Shown: piece by piece, positions 2,322-23,814 of the stretch
Layout of the letters: every line of letters starts with the position of its first letter
How positions within the stretch are numbered: position 1 is the stretch's first letter
Origin: a virus
Direction: 5' to 3' (one strand)
Length of the DNA: 25,089 nucleotides
Virus record (IMG/VR): IMGVR_UViG_3300027365_000055
Span: 1 to 25,089 of that record
Made by a program: the position numbers and the translations under genes
The notes under the pieces: generated by a model
Told to the model about the DNA's origin: nothing
What the model saw: only the letters and a program-made list of their open reading frames with translations
Database searches by the model: none

Positions 2322-3302
2322 TTAATATTTAATTAATGGTAGTAAAGCAACATTCCTTGATCTTATTTCATCTACTAAATTTTCCCAATCTTCTTTTAAA
2401 TGTGGATTCGGTATGTCATCACTAACAGTAAAACTTAAAGGGACATTATTTAGCGTACCATCTGTAGTAAATCCATCAGGCGGCTGCCTTATAGGGAAAG
2501 GTAGTTTTAAACCAAAATCTTGCCAACTTCCAAAATCTCTACCACTATCAACACCCCGACCATTATCAAATCCTCTAACAAATTCACCGCGAAGATCAGG
2601 CAAATTAAAAGTTGTGCTCCCATCACCTGATCCAAAAACAGTTCCAATTTCACCAAATAAATCAGAATAAGTAGTCCTTGATAGTTCAGCCCCGTTACAT
2701 TCTAAATACCCATTAGGAATATTATTAACTGCTCTCCATATTACTGTTCCTGGTGGAACAGCAGTGCTGATTATTTCAGATAAATGCTTACCATCTAAAG
2801 TATCTGCATTAAGGGCTGTACCGTTAACACTTATAATTAATTGGTTATTTACATCATCATAATTCAAATCGATATTATTTCCAGCTGATATAAGGTTACT
2901 TACAGTATCTTGTAAGGCCTCTAACGGTAAATTGCCGCTATTTCCAGGTATTATATTCCCGTAACCTATACTATTTAAGTCAGAAGTTAGGATATTATCT
3001 TTAATCGTTACAGTAGTTAGGTCGTCAGTAGAATTATAAACTACGTTTTCTACAGAAGAATACAAAAAATTAGCGTTTATTTCAGCTTTTATTCTTCTGT
3101 TAGTTATAAAAATACTAGTTTGGTCTTCTGGTACAGTAAACTGGTTACTTGATACATAGCTTACAGGTTCAAAATCTATAAAACCTGTACTTATTACTTT
3201 TTCTAATATCTTATTATCATTTACCCAATCTTTACGTTCTACACGGTCGATACCTACCCAGTCATTAAGCTTTAACTGCGGTGTTTTATATTGACTGCTC
3301 AT
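2322..3302 (-). CDS. Tail fibre with C-terminal tail-collar domain
   Basis: This 326-aa host-recognition fibre has an N-terminal region (residues 1-110) with the KLNDWVGIDRVERKDW pattern seen at the baseplate-attachment end of Bacillota phage fibres. A linker includes ADTLDGKHLSEI (166-177), the common LDG-H fibre motif. The tail-collar domain runs from VPPGTVIW (about 182) through NLPDLRGEFVRGFDNG (233-248). The C-terminus ends SRNVALLPLIKY, the usual ending of collar-domain fibres. AAAGGAGG lies ahead of the ATG. It follows the DUF2313 wedge gene by 12 nt. At 326 residues it is a short fibre. The 3' half is AT-rich compared with the baseplate genes, which suggests exchange by recombination. 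Confidence 0.88.
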   Translation of the reverse strand: MSSQYKTPQLKLNDWVGIDRVERKDWVNDNKILEKVISTGFIDFEPVSYVSSNQFTVPEDQTSIFITNRRIKAEINANFLYSSVENVVYNSTDDLTTVTIKDNILTSDLNSIGYGNIIPGNSGNLPLEALQDTVSNLISAGNNIDLNYDDVNNQLIISVNGTALNADTLDGKHLSEIISTAVPPGTVIWRAVNNIPNGYLECNGAELSRTTYSDLFGEIGTVFGSGDGSTTFNLPDLRGEFVRGFDNGRGVDSGRDFGSWQDFGLKLPFPIRQPPDGFTTDGTLNNVPLSFTVSDDIPNPHLKEDWENLVDEIRSRNVALLPLIKY

Positions 3303-15509: not shown

Positions 15510-16532
15510 TTACGCGTTAAGTAAAATATCCGCGTACATAATCAGTTCCGGGTTAGTTACTTTAGGCATTGAAGCAGTAACTACCTCTACGATTTCACGC
15601 TTAGGTCTTTCCATTGTAAAAGATCTACCAAAGATACCCGGGTTCATATCGTTTTCTACTGTAGGGCCTAATAAACTGTTTCCAATTTCTCCGCCCTCTA
15701 GTAAGAATACGCCGCGGTATTCTGGTAATAATCTTTGAGTAACACGACTTCCACCGCTCTGAACGTCCCTATAGGTAACTTTACTGTCGAAAGCTTCCAT
15801 AGGTGGAAGTTCTAGTCCCTGTAACCACTCGTTAAGCTGTGGTAGAGTAATTCGCTGGGAAGTAGTGTTACCTGTTACAGATTCTACGATCGTACTATCT
15901 TTTAATACTGTACGGATCGCTTTAATTGAAGTTACGAATACGTCCGGTGCTTGACCGTTCGCGTCTACGTAGTCCTGTACCCAGGTTTCGTAATCGCTAA
16001 TAATATCTGGTCCACCGGCGCCGTCGTCCCATTTAACAGCGGCTGTTTTCTTATGATCTGACGGTACCCCGAAGTCAATACCTAACATAACCCCGTTTTT
16101 ATTGTAGCTTAACATACCGTTACCCAGCGCCTGCCAGTTCATCCACTCGATACGGGCGTCAATATTACCGCGTACTCTGGCCGCTTTATTAAGTAACTGG
16201 GCTTCCATAAGCTCGCGTTCAGCTTCGTTATTGCTCATAAGACCTCTTAACTCTTTCTTACTGACTATGTAAGATTGTCCTATGTCTGCAATTTCACCGC
16301 TTACGCGTCTTACTGGGTCCCTGTCAGTCATAGGAAGTTCTGCTCCAGCGTCTACAATGTCTGCCATATCAGCTTGTCTTTCTAGTACTGTTTCGTTCCA
16401 ATCAAGGTCAAAAGTTTCTACCCTGGGAAGAAAACGACTAGAAATGTAGTTCTCGTCTACAGGAATTTCCTGTATAGTTTCTGTAAATAGCGGGTTTTCA
16501 AAATACTCGCTATATTGTGCTAATCCTGCCAT
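15510..16532 (-). CDS. Major capsid protein (Phage_cap_E / lambda gpE type)
   Basis: This 340-aa protein matches the gpE capsid family. It has an N-terminal region with NPLFTETIQEIP and ISSRFLPRVETFDLDW (residues 13-45), the ADIVDAGAELPMTDR segment (57-71), and a long spine helix region with SYIVSKKELRGLMSN then EAQLLNKAARVRGNIDARIEWMNWQAL. C-terminal strands run from QRLLPEYRGVFLLEGGEI to the end at MYADILLNA. It builds the icosahedral shell with HK97 fold. The order scaffold, decoration, capsid is standard. The leader AAGGGGGAATAAATAATG is the same as that of the decoration gene. Confidence 0.92.
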   Translation of the reverse strand: MAGLAQYSEYFENPLFTETIQEIPVDENYISSRFLPRVETFDLDWNETVLERQADMADIVDAGAELPMTDRDPVRRVSGEIADIGQSYIVSKKELRGLMSNNEAERELMEAQLLNKAARVRGNIDARIEWMNWQALGNGMLSYNKNGVMLGIDFGVPSDHKKTAAVKWDDGAGGPDIISDYETWVQDYVDANGQAPDVFVTSIKAIRTVLKDSTIVESVTGNTTSQRITLPQLNEWLQGLELPPMEAFDSKVTYRDVQSGGSRVTQRLLPEYRGVFLLEGGEIGNSLLGPTVENDMNPGIFGRSFTMERPKREIVEVVTASMPKVTNPELIMYADILLNA

Positions 16533-17006: not shown

Positions 17007-17753
17007 TTACTCGTCTTTTTTAAAACCCATTTTCTCTAAGGCACTATTTACTTTCTTTTTGCGGTCATTATCGTTACCTTTGCCGCCGCCCCCACCGGGT
17101 CCGCCGCTTTTAAACTTTTTATCGTCGCCGGTGTCGTCGTCCTTTCCGCTACCTTCTTCGTCTGGGAATAGGTTAGGTTCTGCTTTAACTACCCTTTCCA
17201 CTGCTTTTTCGACGGAACCTTCTACCAGGTTACCGTCTTCATATTCTAAGAGATCAGAATAATCAGTAGTTAAGGCGCGTACTACTTGCTTAGTATCATA
17301 AGGTTTGTACTTACTAGCCACTTTATAGACCCCATTTTCTACACTAAGTCTATCTATAGTAGCTTCCAGCTGATCTGCTTTAGCGGCCTTATCTTTCAGC
17401 CTTTTAAGTTCCTTATCGTCCGGTGTTACTTCGCCGGCTTCTGCCCCAACTGTAACAAGTTCGACTACTTTATCTTCTATTTCGCCGTCTGCTAAATCGT
17501 CTACGTCTTCTACCCCGGCATTACGTAAATACTTTCTGATTTCGCGAAGGGCGCGCCCCTTAACGATCCTATTTACATCGCTTTGACTGTAAATTAAAGT
17601 TTCGCCTTGTTCCGGGTCGTATTCTTTAGCTTCGTCGTGTTCCTCCTGCGATATATTTTCGTCATTTAGTAGCTGATCCAGCTGTTTTAAGTATTCTTCC
17701 CTTTTGATCTTTCCGTTTTCGTACTTAGCTTTAAGCAATTTAAGTTCTTCCAT
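17007..17753 (-). CDS. Capsid scaffolding protein
   Basis: This 248-aa protein sits between the minor head gene and the decoration/capsid genes. It is highly charged, has a central coiled coil (about 110-150, in KELKRLKDKAAKADQLEATI) and an acidic C-terminal region. A GGPGGGGG linker and a basic end (about 215-248) follow, typical of scaffolds that bind capsid through a basic tail. Residues 5-28 resemble a SHOCT-type module (LLKAKYENGKIKREEYLKQL). QSDVNRIVKGRALREIRK (56-73) recalls phage scaffold proteins of the DUF4355 type. There is no protease domain. AAAGGGG precedes the ATG, with a 153-nt gap upstream. Confidence 0.8.
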   Translation of the reverse strand: MEELKLLKAKYENGKIKREEYLKQLDQLLNDENISQEEHDEAKEYDPEQGETLIYSQSDVNRIVKGRALREIRKYLRNAGVEDVDDLADGEIEDKVVELVTVGAEAGEVTPDDKELKRLKDKAAKADQLEATIDRLSVENGVYKVASKYKPYDTKQVVRALTTDYSDLLEYEDGNLVEGSVEKAVERVVKAEPNLFPDEEGSGKDDDTGDDKKFKSGGPGGGGGKGNDNDRKKKVNSALEKMGFKKDE

Positions 17754-17906: not shown

Positions 17907-18074
17907 CTAGCCGCTTGTTTCTATAGGTTCGTAAGTAATACCGTTATCACCCTCTACAGGTTCTTCGTGATTTCTAAGGCCCGTAAATATGTCCTGTGGT
18001 ATTTTATCTTTAAAAGCGTCACAAGTCTGTAGTCCGTTATAATGTTTACAGGTCATACAATAAACAGTTTCCAT
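17907..18074 (-). CDS. Small Cys-containing head-region protein, 55 aa
   Basis: The ORF starts at ATG 18074, overlapping the stop of the minor head gene in TAATG, and ends at TAG 17907. The product has C6, C9 and C18 with H11 (CMTCKHYNGLQTC), a short metal-binding-like knuckle. It then has KIPQDIFTGLRNHEEPVEGDNGITYEPI. This ending with GDNGI-(F/Y)EPI is a pattern I recall in small proteins encoded beside minor head genes of Bacillota phages. Its function is unknown. GAGGTACATA lies upstream of the start. Its short length is the only reason for doubt. Confidence 0.75.
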   Translation of the reverse strand: METVYCMTCKHYNGLQTCDAFKDKIPQDIFTGLRNHEEPVEGDNGITYEPIETSG

Positions 18075-19951
18075 TATGTACCTCCCTTAACGCTGTTAAT
18101 GGTTTCCTCGTAGGCTTTTAAAATAGTTTCTGGTACGTCAGCCTTACGATCAAGCGCTACCATAGCGTTAGTTTCTGCAAATAATTCTGAACTACTGCTG
18201 GCCCCGTATTCAGAAAGCTTAAGTCTATCTACTTCCTTTACTGCAAATTTCTCTAAGGCGTCTTCCCAGGTATCAGCAAGGCCGTTATAATTATATATAC
18301 CATGTCCTGTTTCGTGAGTGGTTAAAGTATAAATAAAATCATCAGCTTCTACATCTGTATGAGTAGACCAGCGGACTACTTCTTTAGCTTTAGCCAGCTT
18401 TTCTCTATTCTGTTCTAACAACCAATCAGGACGCCGGCTATCATTAGCTTGTTTTTCCAGCTTTTCAAGTACCTTTCTACGACTATACTTATAATTTCTT
18501 TGCTGTTTTTTAATATAATTTTCTGGGTTTCTAATATGCAACTTTCTAAAACTCATTCTAGGCATTTTTGTAGGGTCTTTTTTTGAATGAGTTACAAGAC
18601 CAGAAGTCCCTCGATTTTTATTAGCAGGTATCCAGTCAAGGTTATCTATTTCAAGCGGCAAACCGTTTCTACCTGCGGCTATACCTCTGTTAATCTCATT
18701 AAGCTGATCTAAAGTTACCCCGTTTAGATCCACTTTTTTAAAAGTTTTACGTGCTTCTCTTTTAGCTTCCGCTAAAGTGCTGGCCGGCGTAAAAGTACCG
18801 GCTGTAGAAGCTTCTGCGGTTTCTTCTGCAAGTTTATTAAAAGCGTTCTTAGATATTACAATACTTTTACCATTTACTGTATATCTACCTACTTTTTTAT
18901 TAAGATCTGCTATAGTTTCCCCCGGTCTTAAGTAACTTTTCGGGTTATCGACCTCTAACCTTTTATCTAAACTAGGTAAGCCGCGTTCTTTCGCATATTC
19001 TTCATATGTACGGGCTTTAGTATATGTTCTTTCCCCGAATTGATCCGGACCGTCACCGTTACCCCTGGCTATACGTTCTTTTTCACTTACACCCAGGGCA
19101 GATAAAACAGGCGACCATTTACAGCGGCAATTCGGGTGGTTCGGGATCCGCTGACCTGCTATTCCAGCATTTTCGGGCGTATCATAGTCTAAATCGTAAA
19201 GCTTGCCGTCGTTTTTAGCGTCCTTCGGCGCTGTTCTGGCGTCTAAGGTAGCGTTCCAGCGTTTCCCGTCTAATACGTCGGCGTTTTCCATATATGAATA
19301 ACTAGCTCCTAAAGCCGCGGCTCTGTTAGCTTCGGTTCTTATAAGCCGTACCGCATTAAAATAGCCTTCATCAGTTATCTGTCCCAGCCTTCGGGCCGCT
19401 TCATTCCAGCCCCAACCTTCTACTACCATATCGTTAATAGTATCTTTCATTTTACTAGCTAATAAAGCTGTATTAGCCCGTAATCTATCCGAATAATTAC
19501 CCCCGTCATCAAGCCAGGGGTTAGCAAGTACGCCTAAAATACGTTCCATAGATAACATAGGCGTATTTACGCTAATCTTAGCCGCTTGTTCCATTCCGAA
19601 TAAATGACTATAGTAGCTTTTCTCGAACTCATAACCTATATTAGCGCTGTAATAAGGCTGTAGCTTATTTTCTACGCGCTTAATATCAGCGGCTAGACTA
19701 TTAGCCAGGGCGTCCATTCTATCGCCCTGCCGCATTAGGTTAGTTATCTTTTTCGGATCGTCTAAAGCGCCAACCTGTTTATATATAGACTTTGTTTTAC
19801 TTTTTGCTCTGTCTTTAAGCCTTTTCCAGATCGGGACCATTTCTTTAGCATATTGACCGGCGGACTTATCTAACTGGTCCTGGTATTTCTCTACGAAGTC
19901 CGACAGATCTTTCTGCCGACGTTTAAGGACCCGATCGCTTATATCCGCCAT
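18074..19951 (-). CDS. MuF-type minor head protein (SPP1 gp7-like) fused to a zincin-like domain
   Basis: Residues 1-285 of this 625-aa protein form the MuF domain. It has a helical N-terminus, MERILGVLANPWLDDG, the conserved RLIRTEANRAAALGA (202-216), and the end motif GIAGQRIPNHPNCRC (263-277). MuF proteins enter the procapsid at the portal and can be ejected with DNA. Residues 300-625 are an extra domain. It has a linker with basic stretches and TLTTHETGHGIYNY, giving an HExGH motif (H546, E547, H550). SSSELFAETNAM follows, where E589 or E593 could be the third zinc ligand, as in gluzincins. By hand count GC falls to 23-33% in rows over the extra domain, against 52% in a row over the N-terminal half. 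It has a GGGGG ribosome site. Confidence 0.85.
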   Translation of the reverse strand: MADISDRVLKRRQKDLSDFVEKYQDQLDKSAGQYAKEMVPIWKRLKDRAKSKTKSIYKQVGALDDPKKITNLMRQGDRMDALANSLAADIKRVENKLQPYYSANIGYEFEKSYYSHLFGMEQAAKISVNTPMLSMERILGVLANPWLDDGGNYSDRLRANTALLASKMKDTINDMVVEGWGWNEAARRLGQITDEGYFNAVRLIRTEANRAAALGASYSYMENADVLDGKRWNATLDARTAPKDAKNDGKLYDLDYDTPENAGIAGQRIPNHPNCRCKWSPVLSALGVSEKERIARGNGDGPDQFGERTYTKARTYEEYAKERGLPSLDKRLEVDNPKSYLRPGETIADLNKKVGRYTVNGKSIVISKNAFNKLAEETAEASTAGTFTPASTLAEAKREARKTFKKVDLNGVTLDQLNEINRGIAAGRNGLPLEIDNLDWIPANKNRGTSGLVTHSKKDPTKMPRMSFRKLHIRNPENYIKKQQRNYKYSRRKVLEKLEKQANDSRRPDWLLEQNREKLAKAKEVVRWSTHTDVEADDFIYTLTTHETGHGIYNYNGLADTWEDALEKFAVKEVDRLKLSEYGASSSSELFAETNAMVALDRKADVPETILKAYEETINSVKGGT

Positions 19952-19962
19952 ATCTTAGCCCC

Positions 19963-21555
19963 CTATTCTTCCGTATTCTGACCTTCTAAGTCTGTAAACT
20001 CATTACCGAAGCCCATAGCGCCCATATTTTCCTCTAGCTTTTCTTTACGCTGTTCTTTCATTTCAGCCAGGGCTTTTTTAGGATCGTCTACAAACCATAA
20101 CAGCTCATATAAGTATTTATCTGGTACTTTTCCAGCCAGCGTTGCTACTATAGTAGATACTGCTTGATAGTCCTGCGGGATATTCCGGGTCAGACTAGGG
20201 CTTACCCATTCTGACTTATATAACTCTACTTCTGTTTCAGTTTTCCCGGCTAGGATACTGTGTATTTCTTCTTCGGCTATTCCAGCTTCTTTTAACTTGT
20301 CAGCGTTAAGTAGATCCGTGATTATAGCCACAGTTTCCATAATAGCTTCTATGAAATAGATCTCTTTTTTACCTGCTTTAATATCCAGGTTAGCGAACTT
20401 CATTTTAATTTCGTAGGCCGTCTTACCCTCTAAGTTACTTAAATTAGGTGTGAAGGTTGTATCGTGTAAGGTGTTAACAAGACGATCCATATAGTTTTTA
20501 GTGGTCGTGTCGTCCTGGTCCTGGCTAATAAACGCCGCGTCACTATCGGAATTCTTTAAAGCTAAGGCTCTGGCTTTTCTCATTTTCTGTACTTCTTCTT
20601 CGTCGGTATCTACACCCTTAAGCAGTAAATACTGATCCATTAAGTACTCGGCCAGGTTAGATTTATCACTTAACTTGTGTGATATGTCTTTAATAAGGCT
20701 GTAAGCACCGTTTGAAAGATCAGACTTTCCTACATTCTTAAGCCTGTCCTTATAATTAGCAGGTTTTCCGTTATTGAAGATACTTACCGGGATCCTGCCG
20801 GCGTAGTGTGGGAAAGGGTTGTTTTTACCTTCCTCCACGTCTTCAAGTTCGAATTTCTTACCTGTTTTATCGGATATGTACCAGGTTACGTATTTATCGT
20901 CGTAAACTTCGACCCTTTTACGGGTTTCTAGCTTAATACCGGCTTCACTATCTACCGGGACTTCTATATCGTAAGCCCTAAGCACTAAAGCCCGTCTATT
21001 CTTAGTATTATAGACTGGTATTACTTCCTGGACCGGATATTCTTCAAAATCTATGGTCCCGTCCGGCTCGATCCAATGAATTATACAGCTGTAGGCGGCT
21101 AAAGAACCCTGTGTAAGCTGTTCTTTGAGTATTCGGTGCGCTTTAGTTGTTCCTAAGTAATCTTTAATAACCTGCCGGTATTCTTTTACTATATCCGCTT
21201 CGTCAGCTTCCGGATCTTCTACCTGGACCGGGTCCTCTACTTTAAATGTTGGAGCCTGGGCTATCATATAATCGACAACCGTATCTACAATAAGCTGGGC
21301 GTAATTAGCTATCAGTTTATTATTAATACCGTCGCCGCGATCTTTGTCGCGTTTTTCTATTTCTTCTATGTAACCGTCATAAGCTTTCTGGTATTCTTCT
21401 ATGTTATTTTCTCTAAGCCAGGCGTCGTGCTGATCTAAAATTTTTCCGATCCAGCGGCCGTTCTTCTGGCCCCAGGCTTCTGCTACTTCTTGTTCTAGTC
21501 CCGTATCCTCTGGTAGATCTGACAATAAAATCGGTACTGATGTCGTTACTGCCAT
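19963..21555 (-). CDS. Portal protein (SPP1 gp6-like)
   Basis: This 530-aa protein follows the large terminase by 14 nt and precedes the MuF protein. Family-like parts are the early helix with NNKLIANYAQLIVDTVVDYM (78-97) leading into AQAPTF, and the strand/loop with LAAYSCIIHWIEPDGTIDF (152-170). FPHYAGRIPVSIFNN (248-262) and the long helical region around LIKDISHKLSDKSNLAEYLMDQ (287-308) follow. Then come TFTPNLSNLEGKTAYEIKM (367-385) and an acidic C-terminus. Twelve copies normally form the ring through which DNA enters the head. AAAGGGG precedes the ATG. Confidence 0.9.
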   Translation of the reverse strand: MAVTTSVPILLSDLPEDTGLEQEVAEAWGQKNGRWIGKILDQHDAWLRENNIEEYQKAYDGYIEEIEKRDKDRGDGINNKLIANYAQLIVDTVVDYMIAQAPTFKVEDPVQVEDPEADEADIVKEYRQVIKDYLGTTKAHRILKEQLTQGSLAAYSCIIHWIEPDGTIDFEEYPVQEVIPVYNTKNRRALVLRAYDIEVPVDSEAGIKLETRKRVEVYDDKYVTWYISDKTGKKFELEDVEEGKNNPFPHYAGRIPVSIFNNGKPANYKDRLKNVGKSDLSNGAYSLIKDISHKLSDKSNLAEYLMDQYLLLKGVDTDEEEVQKMRKARALALKNSDSDAAFISQDQDDTTTKNYMDRLVNTLHDTTFTPNLSNLEGKTAYEIKMKFANLDIKAGKKEIYFIEAIMETVAIITDLLNADKLKEAGIAEEEIHSILAGKTETEVELYKSEWVSPSLTRNIPQDYQAVSTIVATLAGKVPDKYLYELLWFVDDPKKALAEMKEQRKEKLEENMGAMGFGNEFTDLEGQNTEE

Positions 21556-23562: not shown

Positions 23563-23593
23563 AAGATCGCCCCCAGTCGTAACTATTTTCCTA

Positions 23594-23776
23594 TGTAAAA
23601 CAAGAAAATAGTCTGATCTATAGTTTTAACTAATTAGCTGTGTAGAATAAGAAAATAGTCTGATCTATAGTTTTAACTAATTAGCTGTGTAGAATAAGAA
23701 ATTAATCTGATCTATAGTTCTATCTAATTAACTGTGTAAAACAAGAAATTAATCTGATCTATAGTTCTATCTAATT
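23594..23776. repeat. Four tandem 47-bp direct repeats between the terminase genes
   Basis: Units begin at 23594, 23641, 23688 and 23735, and the last is cut short at about 23776. Each starts TGTA-AA-AAGAAA and has the invariant core TCTGATCTATAG. Units 1 and 2 share one version of the flanks of the core, and units 3 and 4 share another. The flanks of the array mirror each other (CTATTTTCCTATGTAA at left, CTAATTTTCTTATGTAA at right). No ORF crosses the array on the minus strand. Such iterons fit a small-terminase binding (pac-like) site or an operator array. Confidence 0.9.
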
Positions 23777-23790
23777 TTCTTATGTAAATA

Positions 23791-23814
23791 TTCGCAAACC
23801 GTTTATTTTACGAA
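23791..23814. repeat. Inverted repeat TTCGCAAA/TTTACGAA after the small terminase gene
   Basis: TTCGCAAA (23791-23798) and TTTACGAA (23807-23814) form an 8-bp stem (one G-U pair in the transcript) with an 8-nt loop, starting 5 nt after the stop codon. A related ATTCGCAA/TTGCGAAT pair lies before the gene at 24622-24660. It may act as a weak terminator or a protein-binding site. Confidence 0.6.

What the first reader, a model, noticed from the sequence alone, without database searches (positions are those of the whole stretch)
18077..18964. Minor head protein fused to an HETGH zincin-like domain
Seen: a complete MuF domain ending in NHPNCRC is followed by about 325 residues with HETGH and a downstream SSSELFAE that could give a third ligand. 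Known: MuF proteins are packaged near the portal and some phages fuse them to toxin or enzyme domains (polyvalent proteins). Inference: a metallopeptidase may be carried in the virion and delivered into the host, or act in head maturation. I see no separate prohead protease in this head module, although SPP1-type heads also assemble without one.
Basis: partly seen in the sequence, partly recalled or inferred. Interest (0 to 1): 0.75.

Follow-up and report, generated by a model that had tools for sequence, protein, structure and literature searches.

The report
Phage head protein carrying a metallopeptidase
A phage head protein next to the DNA portal carries a zinc-peptidase tail, followed by a tiny overlapping gene that travels with this kind of peptidase from phage to phage; this looks like an injected enzyme plus its own inhibitor (a known type of arrangement with newly recognised parts).

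Summary
ORF 18074-19951(-) (625 aa) is an SPP1-gp7/Mu-F head protein with a C-terminal zincin. H546, E547, H550, Y582, E589 and E593 are conserved in homologues, and E589 is the likely third zinc ligand. The domain (about residues 387-625) belongs to the lethal-factor/Pro-Pro-endopeptidase-like (ATLF) group by profile; AlphaFold and Foldseek gave no independent fold match. In this head lineage all 29 long MuF proteins carry one HExxH in the C-terminus, from at least four zincin classes that swap between close relatives. Short relatives end after the MuF core, so head assembly does not need the zincin. Its family was searched for on its own: 77 of 93 loci have a zincin motif within 600 nt upstream (control 0.45%). 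The window's zincin is closest to zincins linked to this companion in unrelated MuF proteins, so both move as a cassette. Best reading: a MuF polymorphic effector (injected peptidase) with a cognate inhibitor/immunity protein. Injection, proteolysis and inhibition are inferred, not shown. MuF metallopeptidases and downstream small ORFs were reported in 2017; the specific class-locked pairs appear undescribed.

The parts
18074..19951 (-). MuF-zincin fusion gene, 625 aa (P0001)
18887..19951 (-). Head-protein core, residues 1-355, shared at 51-75% identity with relatives
   Evidence: alignment A1
19118..19453 (-). Phage_Mu_F domain, residues 167-278
   Evidence: E 2.1e-9
19121..19141 (-). NHPNCRC motif, residues 271-277
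18917..19078 (-). Highly conserved end of the core (ERIARG..YTKARTYEEYAKERGLP..YLRPGE, residues 292-345); short family members stop within or just after it
18077..18793 (-). ATLF-like zincin domain, residues 387-625
   Evidence: low third-position GC (23-32% against 38-46% in neighbouring head genes)
18302..18316 (-). HETGH, residues 546-550 (two zinc ligands and the general base)
18173..18196 (-). SSSELFAE, residues 586-593; E589 is the proposed third zinc ligand
   Evidence: invariant in 13 homologues; Y-x(5-9)-ExxAE in 62 of 67 companion-linked zincins against 3% of shuffles
17907..18074 (-). Companion gene, 55 aa (METVYCMTCKHYNG..CDAF..KIPQDI..GDNGI), start codon overlaps the MuF stop codon (TAATG); proposed inhibitor/immunity protein
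19963..21555 (-). SPP1-type portal protein (context)
   Evidence: PF05133 E 9.9e-50
17007..17753 (-). Scaffold-like protein (context)
   Evidence: phrog_2303 E 3.5e-6
15510..16532 (-). Major capsid protein E family (context)
   Evidence: PF03864

Best explanation
The gene encodes a MuF-type polymorphic effector. The MuF core (residues 1-355) is a minor head protein that assembles at or near the portal; the C-terminal ATLF-like zincin (about 387-625) is cargo carried in the capsid and released into the host with the DNA, where it would cleave one or a few proteins. The 55-aa overlapping gene encodes the cognate companion, most likely an inhibitor/immunity protein that binds the zincin in the producing cell so that the phage factory is not damaged, and that is not packaged. 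Shown here: MuF core, zincin homology with intact catalytic residues, translational overlap, and co-inheritance of zincin and companion as a cassette. Inferred: virion incorporation and injection (from the biology of MuF/SPP1 gp7 proteins), proteolytic activity, target, and inhibition by the companion.
For: Catalytic residues and third ligand conserved. The family profile matches lethal-factor catalytic chains (E 2.8e-9) and Pro-Pro endopeptidase (E 0.004) in the PDB. All 29 long MuF in the lineage have one C-terminal HExxH, and closest relatives carry different zincin classes (tree, 13 changes over 6 labels). Each long member examined with enough downstream sequence has a small ORF directly downstream. 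Leave-one-out profiles confirm 8 of 10, 14 of 15 and 4 of 4 members of three companion families, with no cross-matches. Companion follows zincin, not head lineage: L077 has an unrelated MuF and carries the class A companion; the window's zincin is nearest to L134 and L157, whose remaining N-terminal parts show no match to the window's MuF core and which have the same companion family at 52% and 44% identity. An independent scan for the companion motif finds HExxH within 600 nt upstream in 77 of 93 loci against 5 of 1116 control windows. Tandem companion copies: five in L185, two in L196. Low GC3 across zincin and companion suggests recent acquisition. [quoted passage not shown] the MuF toxins Bxa and Apk2 have demonstrated immunity proteins (PMC11699363).
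Against: No fold-level confirmation: AlphaFold mean pLDDT 57 and 69, and Foldseek found no significant match. The companion family of the window also follows ADP-ribosyltransferase-bearing MuF (L108, L111) and an unassigned HNHP domain (L098, L173), so it is not strictly zincin-specific and could be a loading factor or chaperone instead of an inhibitor. No evidence of toxicity. Nothing here shows the protein in a virion.
Confidence: 0.66

Rival explanations
1. The zincin is the head-maturation protease of this phage: it acts inside the prohead, cutting itself, scaffold or capsid, and the companion restrains it until assembly.
For: No other protease was found in the window, nor an S78 protease in the contig. 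PHROG phrog_595, called 'head maturation protease', matches the MuF part.
Against: Relatives in the same lineage (L041, L044, L046 at 367-368 aa) and the L047-L066 group (about 305 aa) end without a zincin and show no other HExxH ORF in the locus fetched. phrog_595 matches residues 20-444, before the HETGH. At least four different zincin classes occupy the same slot, which fits interchangeable cargo better than one assembly protease with fixed substrates. SPP1-type heads assemble without a protease (established knowledge).
Confidence: 0.1
2. The zincin is a self-processing device, releasing itself or its linker from the MuF core after delivery, as proposed for MPTase domains in polyvalent proteins.
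For: Iyer et al. 2017 propose autoproteolysis for P1 DdrB and others (PMC5512222).
Against: Here there is no further effector domain to release; only the zincin follows the MuF core.
Confidence: 0.12
3. The small gene is a dedicated loading chaperone or adaptor for effector-bearing MuF proteins, not an inhibitor; the zincin is still an injected effector.
For: The same companion family follows ADP-ribosyltransferase-bearing MuF proteins and has a conserved C-x2-C..C..H pattern typical of small zinc-binding adaptors.
Against: Companion families differ by zincin class within one head lineage, and tandem copies (L185, L196) resemble immunity arrays.
Confidence: 0.25
4. The C-terminal region is a degenerate or purely structural remnant without peptidase activity.
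For: The window's zincin is divergent (about 16-29% identity to homologues) and the model was of limited confidence.
Against: All catalytic and ligand positions are intact and the companion gene is kept.
Confidence: 0.06

Closest known systems
MuF polymorphic toxins (Jamet et al. 2017, PMC5576092; Zhang et al. 2012, PMC3482391)
   Same: MuF head domain at the N-terminus, gene directly after the portal gene, enzymatic C-terminus, small ORF directly downstream; metallopeptidases make up 20% of their set.
   Different: In this lineage nearly all C-termini are zincins of several classes, each with its own companion family. Carriers include phages in which no integrase was found (contig G001 and vB_BboS-125), while that paper places MuF toxins in temperate phages.
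Bxa and Apk2 MuF toxins with cognate immunity proteins (PMC11699363)
   Same: Head-protein fusion, small immunity genes adjacent, one acting by binding the toxin.
   Different: Their enzymes are an ADP-ribosyltransferase and an alarmone synthetase; this one is a predicted zinc peptidase, untested.
ATLF / peptidase M34 group (lethal-factor catalytic domain, Pro-Pro endopeptidase Zmp1)
   Same: HExxH, distal Y-x(6)-ExxAE, profile match to solved chains.
   Different: The window protein itself matches no ATLF Pfam model; only homologues do, just under the curated cut-off (best 27.0 against 27.4 bits). Carrier is a phage head protein.
MPTase-PolyVal zincins of polyvalent proteins (PF18818, Iyer et al. 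2017)
   Same: Phage-borne zincins fused to other domains; relative L003 of the same head lineage has this type.
   Different: The window's zincin gives no match to PF18818 and is of another class.

Membership tests
MuF polymorphic toxin / effector | MuF (Phage_Mu_F / SPP1 gp7) domain at the N-terminus | tested here: met
   PF04233 E 2.1e-9; TIGR01641 above cut-off
MuF polymorphic toxin / effector | Gene directly after the portal gene in the packaging/head module | tested here: met
   Portal 19963-21555 directly upstream
MuF polymorphic toxin / effector | Exchangeable enzymatic C-terminal domain | tested here: met
   Zincin classes swap between close relatives
MuF polymorphic toxin / effector | Small downstream ORF as immunity candidate | tested here: met
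   55-aa ORF overlapping the stop codon, linked family-wide
MuF polymorphic toxin / effector | Toxicity neutralised by the small protein | not testable with these tools
   Needs expression tests
MuF polymorphic toxin / effector | Packaged in the virion and delivered to the host | not testable with these tools
   Inferred from MuF biology
ATLF-like zincin (M34 group) | HExxH plus distal Glu third ligand in an ExxAE context | tested here: met
ATLF-like zincin (M34 group) | Sequence-profile match to the family | tested here: met
   Indirect, through the family alignment: lethal-factor chains E 2.8e-9, Pro-Pro endopeptidase E 0.004. The window alone matches no Pfam model
ATLF-like zincin (M34 group) | Zincin fold | tested here: inconclusive
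   pLDDT 69 with the HETGH and ELFAE stretches on helices; no significant Foldseek match
Prohead / head-maturation protease | Member of a known prohead protease family (S78 tested) | tested here: not met
   No S78 match in the contig containing the window or in five related contigs; no Pfam protease match for P0001 itself
Prohead / head-maturation protease | Kept in all relatives that use the same head module | tested here: not met
   Short MuF relatives lack it
MPTase-PolyVal (PF18818) | Profile match | tested here: not met
   No match for the window protein; relative L003 matches weakly

The most novel reading that the evidence does not exclude
Zincin-bearing MuF proteins form a distinct injected-peptidase system in which the enzyme class is interchangeable but peptidase activity is kept, each class having its own tiny inhibitor family; the C-x2-C/AFPDGIP companion family would then be a broad new family of phage-encoded metallopeptidase inhibitors, occasionally re-used for other injected enzymes.
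Probability: 0.35. Interest if true: 0.8.

Novelty: new variant of a known kind. Interest (0 to 1): 0.6.

Why it matters
No MuF metallopeptidase turned up as experimentally characterised in the papers read; PMC11699363 names only Apk2 (and its own Bxa) as characterised MuF toxins. If correct, this gives ready-made enzyme/inhibitor pairs to test, including one in an isolated phage (Bacillus phage vB_BboS-125). It makes testable whether phages inject proteases at the start of infection, and it would put a function on several small phage gene families that have none.

Tried and rejected
AlphaFold of residues 271-625 (pLDDT 57) and of 387-625 (pLDDT 69): too weak for fold assignment; Foldseek against PDB and BFVD found nothing significant, although the BFVD top rank was a phage minor capsid protein and rank 4 a phage protein named 'Lethal factor'. 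Single-sequence PDB search with the C-terminus: nothing useful. Direct Pfam, PHROG and NCBIfam scans of the C-terminus: no usable zincin match (only a sub-threshold M32 hit). Scan for close relatives of the C-terminus alone returned only the contig that contains the window. Idea that the GenBank label 'ADP-ribosyltransferase' on the vB_BboS-125 homologue shows a toxin swap: rejected, its C-terminus is a zincin. Idea that the window's companion is strictly zincin-specific: rejected, some copies follow ADP-ribosyltransferases. Some companion assignments (L014, L042, L082, L003/L017) are not confirmed by leave-one-out or pairwise profiles. The dynein light-chain matches of profile A5 were treated as spurious because they vanished with A12.

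Full report
Observation. The ORF at 18074-19951 on the minus strand encodes 625 residues. It follows an SPP1-type portal gene and precedes scaffold, decoration-like and major capsid genes of a phage with a contractile tail. Residues 167-278 match Phage_Mu_F and SPP1 gp7. HETGH lies at 546-550 and SSSELFAE at 586-593. The window is a virus record of 25,089 bases that lies, nearly identical, inside a 52,765-base IMG/VR contig.

What the C-terminus is. Family libraries do not recognise it directly. Relatives of the head core were fetched with an alignment of residues 1-355. A profile built from eight homologous C-termini, without the window, scores the window 31.1 bits, against at most 9.0 bits for 1000 shuffles. 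In 13 aligned sequences H546, E547, H550, Y582, E589 and A592 never vary, and E593 varies once. Profiles of the family match lethal-factor catalytic chains (E 2.8e-9) and Pro-Pro endopeptidase (E 0.004) among solved structures. Homologues approach the ATLF Pfam cut-off (27.0 against 27.4 bits). So the domain is an ATLF-like zincin, with E589 the likely third ligand. The fold itself was not confirmed: the better model had pLDDT 69 and found no significant structural match.

Modular exchange. All 29 long MuF proteins of this lineage carry one HExxH in the C-terminus (chance about 0.5% per protein). By motif and profile they fall into at least four classes: ATLF-like (A); one with HE[LMF]GHR and SMGLES motifs (B); MPTase-PolyVal-like (C, L003 by Pfam and L017 by resemblance); and L031 (D). 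A maximum-likelihood tree of the MuF core needs 13 changes for six labels, and the window's nearest relative on the tree (L014, 75% identical in the core) carries a class B-like zincin. L045 carries an unassigned non-zincin domain. Short relatives stop at or just after the conserved YTKARTYEEYAKERG segment, with no zincin and no HExxH ORF elsewhere in the locus fetched. Head assembly in this lineage therefore does not require the peptidase.

The companion gene. The MuF stop codon overlaps the start of a 55-codon gene (17907-18074). Long members examined have such a small ORF at -1 to +15 nt; in vB_BboS-125 it is unannotated and would start with ATT. Companions fall into families that match the zincin class. 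Leave-one-out profiles confirm 8 of 10 (class A type), 14 of 15 (class B type) and 4 of 4 (the window's C-x2-C type), with no cross-matches.

Does the companion follow the zincin or the head? L077 has an unrelated MuF but a class A zincin and the class A companion. A scan of viral contigs for the motif AFPDGIP[DE][DE]I of the window's companion family, made without reference to zincins, gave 99 loci. Of 93 with enough upstream sequence, 77 have HExxH in an open frame within 600 nt, against 5 of 1116 control windows. The window's zincin is most similar to zincins from that set (L134 E 7e-24, L157 E 3e-16), better than to any class A zincin of its own head lineage. L134 and L157 show no match to the window's MuF core (L134 is cut at the contig end), but their companions are 52% and 44% identical to the window's. 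Third-position GC falls from 38-46% in the neighbouring head genes and the first 290 residues to 23-32% in the zincin and companion. Zincin and companion thus appear to have been acquired together. L185 has five tandem companions and L196 two, as in immunity arrays.

Limits. The window's companion family also follows MuF proteins with ADP-ribosyltransferase domains (L108, L111) and with an unassigned domain bearing HNHP (L098, L173), so it cannot be called a strict zincin inhibitor; a chaperone or loading role remains open. Proteolysis, target, packaging and delivery are not shown.

Relation to known systems. Jamet et al. 2017 (PMC5576092) defined MuF polymorphic toxins, found a metallopeptidase in 20% of them, and found a small downstream ORF in 89.4% against 25.5% for short MuF. 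Iyer et al. 2017 (PMC5512222) described zincins in polyvalent proteins and proposed processing or effector roles. Bxa and Apk2 (PMC11699363) are MuF toxins with demonstrated immunity proteins. The present gene fits this kind of system. What appears new is the particular zincin/companion pairs and their class-locked co-inheritance within a lineage that keeps exchanging one zincin for another; only the open-licence library was searched for prior reports.

Verdict.

Noticed in passing
window 23575-23809: About five head-to-tail copies of a 47-nt unit between the small and large terminase genes; similar copies lie near 2950-3026 of the contig containing the window (L088). Possibly a packaging or terminase-binding site.
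   Followed up: partly
L010 5971-8010 (Bacillus phage vB_BboS-125, MH884509): Deposited as NAD(+)--arginine ADP-ribosyltransferase, but the C-terminus is a class B zincin (HEMGH); the companion gene after it is unannotated and would start with ATT.
   Followed up: yes
L185 4878-5983: Five tandem copies of the C-x2-C/AFPDGIP companion after one zincin-MuF gene.
   Followed up: partly
L083 2-1408; L144 upstream ORF of 2276 aa; L135 upstream ORF: Single proteins with more than one effector: class B plus class A zincin (L083), four HEF[GA]H motifs (L144), and zincin followed by an ADP-ribosyltransferase-like region (L135).
   Followed up: no
L088 12655-15777: In the contig containing the window: archaeal/eukaryotic-type primase (small and large subunit matches) fused to an MCM helicase domain, next to a family A DNA polymerase.
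   Followed up: no
L089 5458-6045: A 196-aa ORF with HExxH, weakly like M78/ImmA peptidases, about 2 kb upstream of the small terminase gene in the contig containing the window.
   Followed up: no
L032 3998-5521 and following frame: The zincin of this MuF is split off by a frame change right before HEFGH (sequencing error or real).
   Followed up: no
L098, L139, L173, L095 upstream ORFs: MuF proteins with a shared domain bearing THNHP..(S)..D, JAMM-like in pattern but without a Pfam match, followed by the same companion family.
   Followed up: partly
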